Source of the DNA: Pareuzebyella sediminis
Lineage (GTDB): Bacteria; Bacteroidota; Bacteroidia; Flavobacteriales; Flavobacteriaceae
Reading direction: 5' to 3'
NCBI RefSeq assembly: GCF_008367235.1
Contig: NZ_VTZS01000001.1
Span: 930,001-994,000, forward strand
DNA length: 64,000 nucleotides
The notes beneath the pieces are model-generated. The model worked only from the letters and a program-made list of their open reading frames with translations, made no database searches and was not told the DNA's origin. The position numbers were made by a program, and so were the translations under genes. Below, one piece after another: positions 8,134-62,127 of the stretch (position 1 is its first letter; each line of letters opens with the position of its first letter).

Positions 8134-11100
8134 TTAGAATTTCATATTTACATTAAAGCCGATTTCTCTCGTAATAGGTAAGCCTGTCGCCTCGAGTCCT
8201 ACAAAATTATCGCCTATGATCCCGTTCTGATCGGGATGTATGTGAGGCACCCATTTCTTTAGAACAGCGACGTTATTGGCTATAATATCGAACTTCAAGC
8301 CTTTGATAAACCCGATATTCTCCATGTACTTTGTAAAATCGTATCCGAGGGAAATTTGGCGGAGTTGCCAGGAGCCCGCGTTAAAAACGGATTGTTCAGA
8401 AGCCCTAAAAGTTCGGATCTGCTGATAAAATGGTTGAATTTCAGCTTGTGCCGTATTCACGCTTCCATCGGGGTTTACTCCTTCCCCTATAACATATCCT
8501 ACGTCCCTTCCGACCAAAGTAGCTTTATCGAGACCGTGGCGGTATGCGTTGATATGTGTTCCTGAAATCATCTTATGGCCTAACTTATAGTCGATCAGAA
8601 AAGAAAATGAAAGGTTTTTATATTTAAACGAGTTCGTAAACCCACCGACCCATATTGGGAGTGCCGTACCAAAATTTAATTGTTCTTCAGACCGCAGTGG
8701 AAGGCCACTATTTGGATCGAAAACCTGGTTTCCTTGATCGTCTCGCAACCAACCCCATCCGTATAATTGGGCCATAGGTTTTCCGACCACCTGTCTAAGT
8801 TCACCATGAAACTCCGCGTTTCCTACAGTGATAAAGGTATCGTCGACACTTTCACCCAAACTCAATACCTTCGAGGTATTGTAAGAGACATTGGCCGATG
8901 TATTCCAAACAAAGCTATCTGTTCGGATGGGTGCTAACGAAACGAATATTTCAACCCCTTGATTCTCGCTTTCCCCCACATTGATCAATCGCGTTGTATA
9001 CCCTGACGCATCGGAAACCTGTGCGCTTAGTATTTGATCTGCAGATAATTTATGATAATAAGACCCTTCGAACCTTAGATTATTGAACAGCGTCAATTCA
9101 AGACCCACCTCACGTTCGGTAACCCGCATAGGCTTGAGATTTGAATTAGGAATGGTATTGGTGTTGATGCTACCGACGGGCCTATTCAAAAGTTGAAGTG
9201 GATTCACATTATAAAAAAGGTTATCAGAGTACGGTGCCACGTCGGTATCACTGCCGACCTCTGCAAAAGCGAATCTGATTTTCCCAAAAGACAGCCACTG
9301 CGGCATATTATCGAACGCTTGGCTAAAAACAAAACTTCCGGTCACAGAGGGGTAAAGAATGCTTCTATTTTCCGGAGAAAGTGTGGAAAACCAGTCGTTT
9401 CTGGCCGTGGCATTCAAATAGAGATATCCTCCATACGATAGTTCGGCGGCGGCATACAAAGAATTTACCTGACGTTCAGATAGACTATAATTAGGTGATA
9501 CCGTACTTGCATTTCCAATGGTATAAAGGTCTCGAGTATAAAAATTTTCTCCCAAAATGGTGTTTATATCGGAACGTCTGTACATCAAGTTACCCCCGCC
9601 GTTTACTAACACTCCGAATTCACCGAACTGTTTATTGATCGTAACAAGAAAATCGGTATTGATTTCCCTGAACCGCCTTTGATCTTGAATGTATTGACCA
9701 TTGACAAAGCCTGGAGGTGGGGAAGATTGCCGCCGGGAGCCCGTTGGTAAATTATAGTCGACATCTCTCATATAGTAGTCCTGACCCACCCGCGCTTGAA
9801 GCGAAAGCCAATCGGTAAAATCATATTTTGCCGTGATATTACCAAAAATCCGATCCCGTCGGTTGTTCTCAAAACGCTTTAGTGCAAAATAAGGGTTAGT
9901 TCTATTGGTAAATCTCGAGTACAAAATTTCATCACCGTTCTCATCACAACAATTTTCCTCCAGTAAATCCATGGGCATCGTCGAAGCCAGTGTATATATC
10001 ACCACCGGACTATAATCTTGCTCCGCAATATTGGGTGGATTGGTCCTTATCTCATTGGAGTAGTTGACATTGCCCGAAATCGTAAATCGTTTGAGTTTTT
10101 GGGTGAATCCCATATTTACGGTTCGTCGCGTATACTTTGATCCTGGAAGTATCGAGTTGGCATCCATATTAGAGGCGGAAAAACTAATTCCCCCATTATC
10201 ACCTCCAGAAGCCACCGAAATAGTATTCATTAAAGTGGAGCTATTGCGATAATAATCCCTGATTTTGTTCGGCGTAGGTAGGTAAGGGGCTACAATTCCG
10301 TCAAAAAGAATTTGTGTGCCGCCCACGGGTTCTCCGAAACTCCAAACCCCTGAGGTGGGAAATGGCGAATCTGGCCTCTCGCCCCCCTCACCTTGTCCAT
10401 ATTCATATTGATAGTCCGTATAATCAAGCGGAGTTCCGTTCGTATAATTCGCATTATAGGTGATTTCGACACCGCCGTCAGCTGACCTATTCTTTGTAGT
10501 AATCATTATGACCCCATCTTTCGCCCTAGATCCATAAAGAGCCGAGGCGGCCGCCCCTTTCAAAATGGTCATTGTTTCTACGTCGTCGGGATTGATACTA
10601 CTTAATCCGTCACCACTATCGGAACGCCTGTTGCTACCCACTTCACCAATATCGCCTTGTACCCCGAAAGATGTATTGTTAATGGGTACTCCGTTTACCA
10701 CTATTAAAGGCGCATTATTATTTCCAAAGGAAGAAATACCACGAATTCTAATTTTACTACTTCCCTGTGGACCCGAACCAAGACCCGAAATATTTACACC
10801 GGCCACTTTTCCTTGAAGTGCATCCATAAAATTAGGTGTTCTATTCACGGTAAATTCATCGGAGTCTACCTTTGCCGTAGCATACCCGAGGGTCTTTCTA
10901 TCCCTTTCAATTCCCAAAGCCGTCACCACGACTTCTCCCAAAGCCTGTGTACTCTCTTGCAACACCACATTAAGCGTCGATTGACCATTTACGGCAATTT
11001 CCTTGGAGGTAAAGCCTATATATCCGAAAACGAGAACCGAGGATTCACTGGGCACGGAAAGCGAGTAGTTACCATCAAAATCGGAAGTGGTTCCCAAGGT

Positions 11101-21200: not shown

Positions 21201-23111
21201 TTATTTCACTTCTTCAAAATCTACATCTTCGACATTATCCCCTTCTTTAGCACCTGAATCCGCGGTATCTTCTCCGCCTGGAGCTTGACCTTCACCTTGT
21301 TGTGCTTCGGCTTGGGCCTTGTACATTTCTTCGGAAGCGACCTTCCATGCCTCATTGATTTTTTCCAAGGCTGGGGTTATTACCGCCAAGTCTTTACCTT
21401 CATGAGCCTTTTTCAGTTCTTCCAAAGCCTCTTCGATAGGCTTTTTCTTATCTTCGGAAAGCTTATCGCCAAATTCTTTCAACTGCTTTTCAGTCTGGAA
21501 AATCATGCTATCAGCTTCATTAAGCTTATCGGCCGTTTCTTTTGCCTTTTTATCACTTTCCGCATTAGCCTCGGCTTCGGCTTTCATCTTTTTGATTTCT
21601 TCTTCTGTCAAACCAGATGATGCCTCGATTCTAATATCTTGTGACTTCCCTGTTGCTTTATCGGTTGCGGAAACTTTAATGATTCCGTTCGCATCGATAT
21701 CAAAGGTCACTTCTATTTGAGGCGTTCCTCTTGGTGCGGGCGGAATTCCATCTAAATGGAAACGACCAATTGTTTTATTGTCAGTCGCCATGGGTCGCTC
21801 ACCCTGCAATACATGAATCTCAACGGAAGGCTGATTATCGGCTGCAGTGGAAAATACCTGTGATTTTTTTGAAGGTATTGTTGTATTTGCTTCAATCAAC
21901 TTAGTCATAACACCGCCCATGGTTTCTATACCCAAGGACAAGGGCGTAACGTCTAACAATAACACATCTTTTACGTCTCCGGTCAGTACACCACCTTGAA
22001 TTGCCGCACCGATCGCTACAACTTCATCAGGATTTACACCTTTAGAAGGTTTTTTTCCAAAAAACTTCTCCACAGCCTCTTGTACAGCAGGTATTCTTGT
22101 CGATCCACCTACTAAGATGATTTCGTCAATATCGCTCTTTGATAGTCCCGCAGATTTTAATGCGGTCTCACATGGTGCAATAGTTCTTTTCACCAAATCA
22201 TCGATCAACTGCTCAAACTTAGATCGAGTAAGGGTTCGCACCAAGTGCTTAGGTCCAGATGCAGTTGCCGTCACATAGGGCAAATTGATTTCTGTTTGTG
22301 CTGAAGAAGATAATTCGATTTTCGCCTTCTCGGCGGCCTCGCGTAAACGTTGCAGTGCCATAGCGTCTTTGCGCAAATCGATTCCCTCGTCTTTATTGAA
22401 CTCTTCTGCCAACCAATCGATTATTTTTTGGTCTACATCATCGCCACCTAAGTGGGTATCACCGTCAGTGGACAGTACTTCGAATACACCATCGCCAAGC
22501 TCGAGGATGGAAACATCATGCGTACCACCTCCAAAGTCAAAAACTACGACTTTTTGATCGGTATCCTTTTTATCAAGGCCGTAGGCCAAAGAAGCCGCAG
22601 TAGGTTCGTTGATGATGCGCTCAACGGTCAATCCTGCAATTTCACCAGCTTCCTTAGTTGCCTGACGCTGAGAGTCATTAAAATACGCCGGTACCGTGAT
22701 AACGGCACGGGTTACATCCTGTCCTAAATAATCTTCTGCGGTTTTCTTCATTTTTTGAAGAATCATAGCCGATAATTCTTGGGGGGTGTATTTACGACCA
22801 TCCACATCTACACGCGGTGTATCATTGTCACCTTTGACCACTTTATAGGGTACCCTTTCTGCTTCCTTTGAAGACTCGGAATACTTATTCCCCATAAAAC
22901 GTTTTATCGAATAAATCGTTTTTTCTGGATTAGTTACCGCTTGTCGCTTCGCAGGGTCCCCCACTTTTATTTCGCCTCCCTCAACAAATGCAATTACCGA
23001 GGGGGTAGTTCGTTTTCCTTCTGCATTTGGGATTACCACGGGTTCGTTGCCCTCCATAACGGAGACACAGGAATTGGTCGTACCCAAATCGATGCCTATG
23101 ATCTTGCTCAT
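21201..23111 (-). CDS. dnaK: Molecular chaperone DnaK (Hsp70)
   Basis: The 636-residue protein is a complete Hsp70. The ATPase domain opens with [17 protein letters not shown] and contains [14 protein letters not shown] and [18 protein letters not shown]. The substrate-binding domain has [20 protein letters not shown], and the lid ends in the usual acidic tail (EDVDFEEVK). It folds nascent and heat-damaged proteins with DnaJ and GrpE, which are not in the window. It appears monocistronic: a strong terminator follows and the upstream neighbour is divergent. Upstream lies a composite promoter (TGACA-N3-TGTCA, TTGG-N20-TACC) that is shared with clpB. Confidence 0.99.
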
Positions 23112-23151: not shown

Positions 23152-23204
23152 GGTATGAGAATGACAAACAATATGCCAAGAGGCGGAGACCTGACATGAT
23201 GTCA
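23152..23204 (-). promoter_or_regulatory. dnaK upstream region: dyad plus TTGG-N20-TACC promoter-like element
   Basis: Read on the minus strand, a perfect 13-base dyad TGACATCATGTCA (23192-23204) is followed after 10 bases by TCTTGG (23176-23181) and ATTGTT (23167-23172). TACC follows at 23152-23155, exactly 20 bases after TTGG. The same arrangement stands upstream of clpB. It does not match the housekeeping -7 TAnnTTTG, which suggests a distinct heat-shock promoter with an operator. The ATG is 41 bases past TACC. Confidence 0.6.
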
Positions 23205-55885: not shown

Positions 55886-57160
55886 CTAGAAGTTGAATAA
55901 CTCCCTATCCCCCATCAAAGTGTTCACTTTCTTCTTTACGGATATAATTTTGCTTTCGTCCTCTGAGTTTGTCAATACTTCATCGATTAAATCGACTATT
56001 GTTTTCATATCGTCCTCTTTCAAGCCTCTTGTAGTAATGGCCGCTGTTCCAAAACGGATGCCTGATGTAACAAAAGGGGATTTATCATCAAATGGAACCA
56101 TATTCTTGTTGGCGGTAATGTCGGCCTTCACGAGTATTTTTTCGGCATCTTTACCTGTAATATTCTTATTTCTTAAGTCAATCAACATCATATGATTATC
56201 GGTTCCGCCCGATATAATATGATAACCTTTTGCTACAAAAGCATTGGCCATGGCCTCCGCATTCTTCTTCACTTGTATCATATAATGTAAAAAGTCATCT
56301 GTAAGTGCTTCTCCAAAGGCTATGGCCTTTGCGGCAATAATATGCTCCAATGGACCTCCTTGATTTCCTGGAAAAACGGCCAAATCAAGCAAAGTAGACA
56401 TTTTTCTTAGTTTTCCATTCTTTAGGGTAATACCAAAGGGGTTATCGAAATCTTCCCCCATCAAAATGAGTCCTCCTCGCGGCCCCCGAAGCGTTTTGTG
56501 CGTCGTGGTCGTAACGATATGACAATGGGGAATAGGATCATTTAATATCCCTTTGGCGATGAGACCTGCAGGGTGTGATATATCTGCCAAGAGTATGGCC
56601 TCGACGCTATCTGCAATCTCCCTGAATCTCTTGAAATTCATATCTCTAGAATAGGCAGAGGCACCTGCAATAATCAACTTAGGCTTTTCCTTGAGTGCAA
56701 CCTCTTGAATTTTATCATAATCCAAAACCCCTGTTTCCGGGTCTACACCATAAAAAACCGGATTGTATAGACGACCTGAAAAATTGACCGGTGAACCGTG
56801 CGTTAAATGCCCACCATGCGAAAGATCAAAACCCAGTATAGTATCTCCTGGTTTTAGACAAGCGTGATAAACCGAGGCATTGGCCTGAGAACCTGAATGG
56901 GGCTGTACGTTGGCATATTGGGCACCGAACAATTCCTTAGCCCTGTCAATGGCCAACTGTTCAATTTGATCGACCACCTCGCACCCCCCGTAATAGCGCT
57001 TCCCGGGATAGCCTTCGGCATATTTGTTGGTCAGTACCGATCCTGCGGCCGCCATTACTTGCGGACTCGTAAAATTCTCCGAAGCGATAAGCTCAATGCC
57101 GTCAATTTGTCTTTGTTTCTCTTTGGCAATTAAATCGAAAACTTGGGTGTCGCGATGCAT
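55886..57160 (-). CDS. glyA: Serine hydroxymethyltransferase
   Basis: The 424-residue PLP enzyme interconverts serine and glycine and charges tetrahydrofolate with one-carbon units. Signatures are [50 protein letters not shown] and DISHPAGLI, then [14 protein letters not shown], where the lysine binds PLP. Length fits the family (about 415-430). A -7-like element lies upstream on the minus strand. It is in the cytosol and is not in an operon here. Confidence 0.98.
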
Positions 57161-59361: not shown

Positions 59362-59439
59362 TTGGTAAATTTAATTGATAACAACGCTCATCCTTAAAAA
59401 AGAAGACTGACTAAATGTCTTTTTTCTACTTGGTTTTAC

Positions 59440-59491
59440 CGACATTTTGTCAACCCCTTGGTCTTGGTAAGATTGTTGCCTTGAGTTTACC
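59440..59491 (+). promoter_or_regulatory. clpB upstream region: dyad plus TTGG-N20-TACC promoter-like element
   Basis: The plus strand reads CGACATTTTGTCA (59440-59452; GACA-N3-TGTC), then after nine bases TCTTGG (59462-59467), ATTGTT (59472-59477) and TACC (59488-59491), with 20 bases between TTGG and TACC. It matches the dnaK upstream region in order and nearly in spacing. The ATG is 36 bases past TACC. Confidence 0.6.
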
Positions 59492-59526: not shown

Positions 59527-62127
59527 ATGAATATGAATAACTACACAATAAAATCACAAGAAGCTCTTCAGCGTGCCCAGCAGCTGGCACAGGGCTTCGG
59601 ACACCAGCAAATTGAAAATGAACACCTTTTTAAAGCTATTGGAGAGGTAGATGAGAATGTATTGCCCTTCATCTTGAAAAAGTTGAATATCAATGTAGGG
59701 CTGCTCAATCAGATTTTGGATAAAGAGCTAAGTAGTTTCCCAAAGGTATCGGGAGGCGAGCTCATGCTTTCACGAGAAGCAGGAAAGACCGTAAACGAAG
59801 CTGCAATTATCGCACAAAAAATGGGTGATGAATTCGTTTCAATCGAACATCTTCTTCTGGCCATTCTTAAATCTAAAAGTAAGATTGCCCAAATCCTTAA
59901 AGACCAGGGCGCGAACGAAAAAGATTTAACGGCGGCTATTGAAGAATTGAGAAAAGGTGGTAAGGTGAATTCGCAAAGTGCTGAAGAGACGTACAACGCC
60001 TTGGAAAAATATGCAAGGAACCTGAACCGACTGGCTGATAACGGCAAATTAGATCCAGTAATCGGACGTGACGAAGAAATCCGTAGAATTCTTCAAATAC
60101 TATCTAGAAGAACTAAAAACAATCCAATGTTAGTGGGTGAACCCGGTACCGGTAAAACGGCAATCGCGGAAGGCCTAGCACATCGTATAGTGCAAGGAGA
60201 CGTTCCTGAAAACCTCAAGGACAAAGTGATCTATTCGCTTGATATGGGAGCTTTGATCGCCGGCGCCAAATACAAAGGAGAATTTGAAGAACGTTTAAAA
60301 TCCGTTATTAAAGAAGTTACTTCCGCTGATGGCAATATCGTTCTGTTCATCGACGAGATTCACACCTTGGTAGGGGCCGGTGGTGGCCAAGGAGCCATGG
60401 ACGCCGCAAACATTTTGAAGCCGGCGCTGGCTAGGGGAGAATTACGGGCTATTGGGGCAACAACCCTTGATGAGTACCAAAAATATTTTGAGAAGGACAA
60501 GGCGTTAGAACGCCGATTTCAGAAAGTCATCGTAAATGAACCAGACACAGAAAGTGCCATTTCCATTTTAAGAGGTATAAAAGAAAAATATGAAGCGCAT
60601 CACAAGGTTCGGATCAAAGACGAGGCCGTAATTGCAGCAGTCGAACTATCTCAACGTTACATCACAAATCGCTTTTTACCGGACAAGGCCATTGATCTAA
60701 TGGACGAAGCCGCTTCAAAACTACGAATGGAAATTAATTCCAAACCGGAAGAGCTTGATGTACTGGACCGCAAGATTATGCAACTTGAAATAGAGATTGA
60801 AGCGATAAAGCGAGAAGATGACCAAGCTAAATTAAAATTACTGAATGTAGATTTGGCCAATCTAAAAGAGGACCGCAATGAGGTATATGCTAAATGGGAA
60901 AGTGAAAAATCGGTTGTCGATAATATCCAGAAAACAAAACATGATATTGAGGAATTCAAACTGGAAGCAGAACGTGCAGAACGCAATGGCGAATACGGAA
61001 AAGTAGCAGAACTTCGTTACGGCAAGATTAAAGAGGCCCATGAAAGACTGGAAATACTGCAACAAGAATTACAGGAACAGCAAAAGGGAGAAACGCTAAT
61101 AAAAGAAGAAGTCACCACCGAAGATATTGCGGAGGTAGTGGCCAAATGGACCGGAATTCCTGTAACCAAAATGATGCAGAGCGAGCGTGAAAAGTTACTC
61201 AAATTAGAAGATGTACTGCATAAACGTGTAGTGGGTCAAGAAGAGGCCATTCAAGCTGTTTCTGATGCTATTAGAAGGAGTCGGGCAGGCTTACAAGACG
61301 CAAAACGGCCTATCGGATCGTTTCTGTTTCTTGGAACAACCGGCGTCGGTAAGACCGAGCTGGCCAAAACGTTGGCTTCATATCTCTTTGATGATGAGAA
61401 TGCCCTGACCCGTATCGACATGAGCGAGTATCAAGAGCGCCATTCGGTCAGCCGATTGGTAGGTGCACCTCCAGGATATGTGGGGTACGACGAAGGTGGG
61501 CAGCTCACCGAAGCTGTCAGAAGGCGGCCTTACTCGGTCGTATTGCTCGATGAAATTGAAAAAGCACATCCAGATACTTTCAATATTCTGTTACAGGTTT
61601 TAGACGAAGGAAGACTGACCGATAACAAGGGACGTGTTGCCGATTTTAAAAACACGATAATTATAATGACAAGTAATATGGGTAGCCATATCATACAAGA
61701 AAAATTTGAGGACAGTGACGATATTTACAGTGCTACCGAGGCGGCACGTGTAGAGGTGTTGGGGCTGTTGCGTAAGACAATACGGCCGGAATTTTTGAAT
61801 CGTATCGACGATATCATAATGTTTACACCCCTAAGTAAGGATGATATCACCAAAATTGTAAGGCTTCAACTTGAACAATTGAAGAAAATGATAGCCAAGC
61901 AACATATTACAATAGACGCTACCGATGAGGCCGTAGCCTATCTAGCCAAAAGAGGATATGATCCACAATATGGCGCGAGGCCAATCAAACGTGTTATTCA
62001 AAAAGAAGTGCTGAATAATCTTTCCAAGGAATTGTTAAGTGGAAAAATTTCGGCCGAAAGCATTGTTTTGATTGATTCATTTGACGATGCTTTGGTATTC
62101 AGAAACCAAAATGAATTGGTGGAATAA
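59527..62127 (+). CDS. clpB: ATP-dependent chaperone ClpB (disaggregase)
   Basis: The 866-residue AAA+ protein has an N-terminal Clp domain (about 1-145), NBD1 with Walker [14 protein letters not shown] and Walker [15 protein letters not shown], and a long coiled-coil middle domain (about 410-530, rich in Glu and Lys). NBD2 has Walker [13 protein letters not shown] and Walker [14 protein letters not shown]. It ends in the small C-terminal domain with [11 protein letters not shown]. It works with DnaK to rescue aggregated proteins in the cytosol. Two ATG codons are possible (59527, 59533). A terminator follows at 62148. It shares a promoter architecture with dnaK. Confidence 0.98.

What the first reader, a model, noticed from the sequence alone, without database searches (positions are those of the whole stretch)
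23152..23204. dnaK and clpB share an unusual promoter architecture (GACA-N3-TGTCA ... TTGG-N20-TACC)
Upstream of dnaK (minus strand) and of clpB (plus strand), the same elements occur in the same order: a GACA-N3-TGTCA dyad, then TCTTGG after 10 or 9 bases, then ATTGTT, with exactly 20 bases between TTGG and TACC in both. The span from the dyad to ATTGTT is 38 bases in each case. The -7 part (TACC) does not fit the housekeeping TAnnTTTG. A GACA-N3-TGTC dyad is expected only about once by chance in a window of this size. Two copies, each 75-95 bases before a heat-shock chaperone gene, are unlikely to be chance. This suggests a heat-shock regulon with its own promoter and a regulator that binds the dyad.
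Basis: partly seen in the sequence, partly recalled or inferred. Interest (0 to 1): 0.75.

Follow-up and report, generated by a model that had tools for sequence, protein, structure and literature searches.

The report
Sigma-54 heat-shock promoters with activator sites
In this marine flavobacterium and its relatives, the main chaperone genes share a sigma-54 promoter with a palindromic site next to it, probably bound by an activator encoded near groES, which may explain how bacteria without the usual heat-shock repressor control these genes.

Summary
The shared elements are real, but the promoter was misread. Upstream of dnaK and clpB lies a sigma-54 promoter (GG-N10-G), not TTGG-N20-TACC. The GACA-N3-TGTC dyad is conserved, centred 18-20 bp before TGG (>=7/8 letters: 68/80, 25/26, 19/40). 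Further dyads upstream lie mostly at whole helical turns: 51 of 60 within 1.5 bp of 19.5+10.5n. A profile built from dnaK, clpB and groES promoters finds mainly chaperone genes in 60 family genomes, including 20 htpG promoters not used in training; grpE has it in this genome. Sigma-54 control of these genes is published for Flavobacterium psychrophilum; I found no description of the dyad or its binder. Best candidate: a 422-residue AAA+ activator encoded 2 kb upstream of groES, without an N-terminal sensor domain, with a Fis-type HTH nearly invariant in 20 aligned orthologs. HrcA was not found in the 15 genomes sampled from the class. Binding, activation and heat response were not tested here.

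The parts
23193..23203 (-). dnaK activator-site dyad GACATCATGTC (TGACA-N3-TGTCA with flanks), centred 20 bp before the T of TGG, about -46
   Evidence: >=7/8 dyad at 19 or 20 bp in 68 of 80 dnaK upstream regions
23163..23178 (-). dnaK sigma-54 promoter TGGCATATTGTTTGTC (-24 GG, -12 G; GG-N10-GT)
   Evidence: GG-N10-G in 80 of 80 dnaK upstream regions
23152..23155 (-).
   Evidence: position counted from the -24/-12 element (inference); TACC there in 2 of 80
21201..23111 (-). dnaK, 636 aa
   Evidence: NCBIfam NF001413/TIGR02350
59441..59451 (+). clpB promoter-proximal dyad GACATTTTGTC, centred 19 bp before the T of TGG
   Evidence: 25 of 26 clpB promoters at 18-19 bp
59409..59419 (+). clpB distal dyad GACTAAATGTC, 32 bp (three turns) upstream of the proximal one
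   Evidence: 15 matches of GAC-N5-GTC at offsets 50-52 in 26 clpB promoters
59465..59480 (+). clpB sigma-54 promoter TGGTAAGATTGTTGCC (GG-N10-GC)
   Evidence: top profile hit of the genome (this promoter is in the training set)
59488..59491 (+).
   Evidence: position counted from -24/-12 (inference); TACC there in 1 of 26
59527..62127 (+). clpB, 866 aa
   Evidence: NCBIfam TIGR03346

Best explanation
dnaK and clpB are read from sigma-54 promoters as part of one chaperone regulon (dnaK, clpB, groES-groEL and grpE in this genome; htpG in relatives). The TGACA-N3-TGTCA dyad is the binding site of the sigma-54 activator (bacterial enhancer-binding protein, bEBP). The most likely activator is the 422-residue AAA+ protein encoded between miaB and lptE, about 2 kb upstream of groES. 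It would bind the dyad as a dimer through its C-terminal Fis-type HTH, form a hexamer directly beside the polymerase (site centred near -45, so with little or no DNA loop), and open the promoter by ATP hydrolysis. It has no N-terminal sensor domain, so its activity is probably set in trans, as for PspF, perhaps by free chaperones. Shown here: conservation of promoter and dyad, nearly fixed spacing, helical phasing, regulon content, protein anatomy and co-occurrence. Inferred: that this protein binds the dyad, activates there, and responds to heat.
For: GG-N10-G in 80/80 dnaK upstream regions, with high information in the dyad arms and low in its middle and in most of the linker. Dyad >=7/8 at 18-20 bp: dnaK 68/80, clpB 25/26, groES 19/40; after removing promoters 75% or more alike 57/68, 24/25, 14/33. 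Phasing: 51/60 distal dyads within 1.5 bp of 19.5+10.5n (29% expected by position), best of the periods tried 10.5 (11.0 nearly as good); the 7 distal ones of the 14 class dnaK promoters are all in phase, 4 of them from other families than the window's. Such displacement suits an activator, not a blocking repressor. Own genome: clpB, groES, dnaK are the top 3 profile hits, grpE 6th. In 60 family genomes (own included) 58 have hits and the 150 listed are 51 dnaK, 41 groES, 27 clpB (training genes), 20 htpG, 1 grpE, 1 hsp20-like, 3 thioredoxin-like, 1 secA-like, 5 other (htpG, hsp20, thioredoxin, secA named by reading). rpoN present. Regulator: Sigma54_activat, GAFTGA, HTH_8, no receiver; orthologs in the 15 class genomes sampled, 14 matched to the HTH by the search, the 15th by reading. 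The family's second core bEBP has no HTH. In 9 relatives the groES-linked protein is the only HTH-bearing bEBP found at E<=1e-30; 7 of the 9 have an 8/8 dnaK dyad at offset 19. HrcA found in 0/15 of the class sample. Published start sites at sigma-54 motifs for these genes in F. psychrophilum, where a 'probable sigma-54-dependent transcriptional regulator' with LptE (THC0290_0733-0732) is near groES (THC0290_0729) (PMC9723704).
Against: No binding, heat-shock or knockout data. -45 is far closer than the 100-150 bp usually given for bEBP sites (PMC7057263 passages). 5 of the 14 class dnaK promoters have no >=7/8 dyad at 10-130 bp. Only 11 of 17 distal dnaK dyads are in phase. No groES promoter has 8/8 at this place, and one half-site is degenerate in grpE. 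G034, a single-cell assembly of unknown completeness, has a full dnaK dyad but only an HTH-less bEBP was found; G028, a MAG, has only that kind and no proximal dyad; G021 has a second HTH-bearing bEBP. This genome has three further bEBPs with HTH. The same HTH occurs in phylum members that keep HrcA and in f20, where no sigma-54 element precedes dnaK; a sigma-54-like element also precedes dnaK in two HrcA-bearing f13 genomes. So the protein's ancestral role, and the link between lost HrcA and sigma-54, are not simple. Clade members are not independent.
Confidence: 0.8

Rival explanations
1. The sigma-54 promoter is real, but the dyad binds a separate repressor or accessory factor that adds heat control; the bEBP acts from elsewhere or from solution, for example the HTH-less receiver-type bEBP whose gene lies about 4.4 kb from dnaJ.
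For: The dyad adjoins the polymerase site, unusual for an enhancer; a bEBP without a DNA-binding domain occurs in this genome and eight fetched relatives and could act from solution; G034 has the dyad but only that kind was found.
Against: Dyads at whole turns up to 93 bp upstream and paired dyads 32 bp apart in clpB fit an activator; a blocking repressor would hardly work from there. Other regulators were not surveyed.
Confidence: 0.12
2. Another HTH-bearing bEBP (one of the three receiver-type ones of this genome) binds the dyad.
For: They exist in this genome and their sites are unknown.
Against: Nine relatives have no other HTH-bearing bEBP detected, and 7 of them keep the full dnaK dyad at the standard spacing; the groES-linked protein was found in each of the 15 class genomes.
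Confidence: 0.05
3. One reading: a special promoter TTGG-N20-TACC read by another sigma factor.
For: Both window copies have it, and the pattern is over-represented in the window, 8 against 2.14 expected.
Against: TACC is at that place in 2/80 dnaK, 1/26 clpB, 0/40 groES promoters, while GG-N10-G is in each of these.
Confidence: 0.02
4. The shared pattern is coincidence.
For: The dyad alone is no more frequent than its reversed control in the genome, and one of three composites in the window is probably chance.
Against: Composite expected 0.08 times per 64 kb; conserved across the family; 20 htpG promoters found outside the training set.
Confidence: 0.01

Closest known systems
Sigma-54 (SM4) regulon of Flavobacterium psychrophilum (PMC9723704, ISME Commun 2021)
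   Same: Same family; mapped start sites at -24/-12 motifs for groES-groEL, dnaK, grpE-dnaJ, htpG, clpB, lon (section 15 part 1 read).
   Different: 'palindrom', 'TGACA' and 'inverted repeat' are not in the main text (supplements not read). The activator is left open among three PF00158 proteins.
Computed sigma-54 regulons across phyla (PMC12316311, PLoS One 2025)
   Same: Chaperone genes enriched for predicted sigma-54 promoters in Flavobacteriia and Bacteroidia (passages).
   Different: No activator or activator site is named for these genes in the passages seen.
PspF and HrpR/HrpS type bEBPs
   Same: Activators without a cis-regulatory domain, held in check in trans (passages of PMC7057263).
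   Different: About 110 residues of linker with one conserved helix; chaperone regulon; site next to -24 instead of 100-150 bp away.
NtrC at glnA (recalled, no call)
   Same: Paired activator sites about three turns apart, as in clpB (32 bp).
   Different: NtrC has a receiver domain, another site sequence and more distant sites.
Myxococcus HsfA/lonD (recalled, no call)
   Same: An NtrC-type activator controlling a heat-shock gene.
   Different: Two-component regulator; one protease gene, not the chaperone set.
HrcA/CIRCE (recalled)
   Same: Palindrome-based control of groESL and dnaK in many bacteria.
   Different: A repressor; HrcA was not found in this genome nor in the other 14 class genomes sampled. 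CIRCE itself was not searched for.

Membership tests
Sigma-54 dependent promoter | -24/-12 elements with GG-N10-G(C) spacing | tested here: met
   window dnaK and clpB; GG-N10-G in 80/80 dnaK, 26/28 clpB, 40/41 groES; the -12 dinucleotide is more often GA or GT than GC, except in groES
Sigma-54 dependent promoter | rpoN in the genome | tested here: met
   PF04552 match at C15:306552-307028, 173 bits
Sigma-54 dependent promoter | transcription requires sigma-54 and an activator ATPase | not testable with these tools
   no expression data here; published start sites in F. psychrophilum agree
bEBP (Sigma54_activat) family | AAA+ sigma-54 interaction domain with Walker A and GAFTGA | tested here: met
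   PF00158 226.8 bits; GESGVGKE and GAFTGA in the sequence
bEBP (Sigma54_activat) family | C-terminal Fis-type HTH | tested here: met
   HTH_8 PF02954 at 382-420; RTLYRK invariant in 20 aligned orthologs
bEBP (Sigma54_activat) family | N-terminal sensor domain (optional in the family; absent in PspF) | tested here: not met
   AAA+ domain starts at residue 13; no receiver or other N-terminal domain found
HrcA/CIRCE | hrcA in the genome | tested here: not met
   PF01628: 0 of 15 in the class, 35 of 46 in the rest of the phylum sample
Sigma-32 (RpoH) regulon | RpoH sigma factor | not tested
   not searched in this genome; F. psychrophilum is reported with sigma A, one sigma-54 and seven ECF factors
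Bacteroidota housekeeping promoter | TAnnTTTG -7 box | tested here: not met
   no exact TAnnTTTG within 300 bp upstream of dnaK or clpB
Classical bEBP enhancer | site 100 bp or more upstream, reached by looping | tested here: not met
   centre about -45 in most dnaK and clpB promoters of the family; further upstream in some other lineages; looping not tested

The most novel reading that the evidence does not exclude
A class-wide heat-shock switch built from sigma-54: a sensor-less bEBP encoded near groES binds directly beside the polymerase, in helical register and without a loop, and is held inactive by free chaperones through its conserved linker helix, so that protein unfolding releases it. 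The same activator would stand in for HrcA throughout the class.
Probability: 0.3. Interest if true: 0.8.

Novelty: new variant of a known kind. Interest (0 to 1): 0.62.

Why it matters
No HrcA was found in the 15 genomes sampled from this large class, and no regulator of its chaperone genes is named in the papers I could find. This gives a concrete, testable regulator and site. It also offers a natural series in which a candidate activator site stands at whole helical turns from about -45 to about -119, a good test of how bEBPs reach sigma-54 polymerase without a long loop.

Tried and rejected
TTGG-N20-TACC as a promoter: rejected, TACC unconserved. The dyad alone as a genome-wide signal: rejected, 28 places against 38 for the reversed control. 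The HTH-less bEBP of about 390 residues as dyad binder: rejected, no DNA-binding domain. HrcA as regulator: rejected, not found. Elimination by single-bEBP genomes alone: not decisive; of five, three keep only the groES-linked protein (G027, G037, G040) and two only the HTH-less one (G028, G034). Three further genomes with two bEBPs (G032, G038, G039) were not fetched. The structure model of the regulator (mean pLDDT 76.9, pTM 0.58) shows the AAA+ domain, low-confidence linker parts (264-280, 329-378), a helix 282-309 and the HTH; no fold search was run. Rows dropped before counts: dnaK L081 (contig starts at the gene); clpB 30 loci fetched, 28 with a start found (L153, L162 lost), 26 with a sigma-54 element (L158, L175 lost); groES 41 loci used (12 from bEBP regions, 29 of the 30; L196 lost), 40 with the element (L187 lost). 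One search listed 150 matches and said more were not listed; it used stricter filters. differ by one clpB promoter (24 against 25); I think because cut the upstream stretch at 170 bases. Two B. thetaiotaomicron papers were searched for rpoN, dnaK, groES and heat shock: PMC12596196 has one passage on SigH, PMC7366714 none of these terms (passages only).

Full report
What is there. The window lies in a 4.9 Mb genome; the closest named dnaK relatives are Zobellia and Maribacter, Flavobacteriaceae. The downstream genes are dnaK and clpB.

The promoter. I fetched 80 dnaK loci from named records; 79 were usable and with the window give 80 upstream regions. Each of the 80 carries TGG[C/T]A[T/C]..TTG with GG-N10-G, the -24/-12 pattern of sigma-54. 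In the alignment anchored on TGG the information is high in the two dyad arms, low in the three central bases (except one C-rich column) and in most of the linker, high in TGGCA and TTG-C, and low where TACC stands. Counting from -24/-12, +1 falls at about 23152 (dnaK) and 59491 (clpB), that is on TACC; this is inference. No exact TAnnTTTG box was found within 300 bp upstream of either gene. rpoN is present.

The dyad. With at least 7 of 8 letters of GACA-N3-TGTC and the centre 18-20 bp before the T of TGG: dnaK 68/80, clpB 25/26, groES 19/40; the rate elsewhere in the dnaK loci is 115 in 459,345 positions. After removing promoters 75% or more alike: 57/68, 24/25, 14/33. No groES promoter reaches 8/8 there. 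clpB promoters often have a second dyad about 32 bp further upstream: 15 matches of GAC-N5-GTC at offsets 50-52 in 26 promoters; the window has it at 59409-59419.

Helical phase. Dyads further upstream stand mostly at whole turns from the proximal position: 51 of 60 lie within 1.5 bp of 19.5+10.5n, 29% expected by position alone; of the periods tried (8 to 13 in steps of 0.5) 10.5 is best (0.77), 11.0 close (0.76). By gene: dnaK 11/17, clpB 13/13, groES 18/21, class dnaK set 7/7, htpG 2/2. The class set is 14 dnaK promoters of the phylum sample that lie in the window's class: two have the proximal dyad, seven a distal one (four of them in other families, at 72, 83, 93 and 30 bp), five none at 7/8. 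Related sequences are not independent, so I give no p-value.

The regulon. A sequence-only profile of 40 sites from dnaK, clpB and groES gives clpB, groES and dnaK as the top three hits of the window's genome and grpE (named by reading) as sixth; five of the other six run into long open frames, the last was not settled. The grpE promoter is TGACATTTTGACA, 12 bases, TGGCAGTACTTTTGCC. In 60 family genomes, own included, 58 have a hit; the 150 listed are 51 dnaK, 41 groES, 27 clpB, 20 htpG, 1 grpE, 1 hsp20-like, 3 thioredoxin-like, 1 secA-like and 5 others. The first three genes were in the training set; the rest were not. htpG, hsp20, thioredoxin and SecA labels are my reading of the proteins printed.

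The activator. Sigma-54 polymerase needs a bEBP (established knowledge; PMC7057263 passages). The genome has five strong PF00158 proteins. One, 422 residues, lies in miaB - bEBP - lptE - unknown - secG - groES - groEL (miaB, lptE and secG named by reading and recall). Its AAA+ domain starts at residue 13, it has no sensor domain, and HTH_8 is at 382-420. Orthologs were found in each of the 15 class genomes sampled, reaching the HTH in 14 by the search and in the 15th by reading. RTLYRK is invariant in 20 aligned orthologs across the phylum, and so are R283, Y287, D296 and K301 in a linker helix. The family's second core bEBP, about 390 residues with a receiver, ends after the AAA+ domain; I saw it in this genome and eight relatives. 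Among 40 relatives searched with PF00158 at E<=1e-30 (41 asked, one not held) I fetched the bEBPs of 12 genomes with one or two, plus one protein of a thirteenth. In nine (G006, G009, G015, G027, G031, G033, G036, G037, G040) the groES-linked protein is the only HTH-bearing bEBP found; seven of these have an 8/8 dnaK dyad at offset 19 and two (G033, G037) do not. G021 has a second HTH-bearing bEBP. G028 and G034 have only the HTH-less one; G034 still has the dyad. This is the main result against my assignment, though that assembly's completeness is unknown.

Heat-shock control otherwise. HrcA was found in 0/15 genomes of the class and 35/46 of the rest of the phylum sample. Outside the class the picture is mixed: three HrcA-less genomes of family f9 have a sigma-54-like element before dnaK, five HrcA-less genomes of f20 and one of f18 do not, and two HrcA-bearing genomes of f13 have one further upstream.

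Literature. PMC9723704 (section 15 part 1 and passages) maps start sites at sigma-54 motifs for groES-groEL, lon, dnaK, grpE-dnaJ, htpG and clpB in F. psychrophilum, and lists a probable sigma-54-dependent regulator with LptE (THC0290_0733-0732) close by locus tag to groES (THC0290_0729), itself behind another promoter type (SM5). It suggests several activators but assigns none. PMC12316311 (passages) predicts sigma-54 control of chaperones in Flavobacteriia and Bacteroidia. I found no paper naming the dyad or its binder in the searches; the library holds open-licence papers only, and supplements were not read. [quoted passage not shown]

Conclusion. The promoter class is known; the conserved, phased activator site and its likely owner are new here as predictions. 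Steps shown: sequence conservation, spacing, phasing, regulon content, protein anatomy, co-occurrence. Steps inferred: binding, activation, heat response, trans control.

Noticed in passing
L123:4839-6002 (genome C17, minus strand): A receiver-type bEBP (387 aa) without any DNA-binding domain, about 4.4 kb from a dnaJ-like frame (named by reading); HTH-less bEBPs were also seen in eight fetched relatives. It may act from solution; its role is unknown.
   Followed up: partly
L122, secG-groES gap (reverse-strand positions 8991-9020): The hairpin after secG contains TGACAAGCTGGCA, a near-dyad about 22 bp upstream of the groES half-dyad, so a terminator may double as a regulator site; similar hairpins stand before groES in many of the relatives printed.
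   Followed up: partly
window 57101-57139: A third dyad plus GG-N10-G composite on the plus strand inside the serine hydroxymethyltransferase gene, probably chance.
   Followed up: no
L263-L266, L269 (phylum family f20): Five genomes without HrcA and without a sigma-54 element before dnaK, yet with the full-length groES-type bEBP; how they control chaperones is open.
   Followed up: no
L317, L322, L363: Profile hits before thioredoxin-like genes (named by reading) in three relatives, suggesting that the regulon includes a thioredoxin in some lineages.
   Followed up: no
G065, G087, G043 clpB places: clpB matches with one or two in-frame stops in three genomes; sequencing errors or broken genes, not examined.
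   Followed up: no
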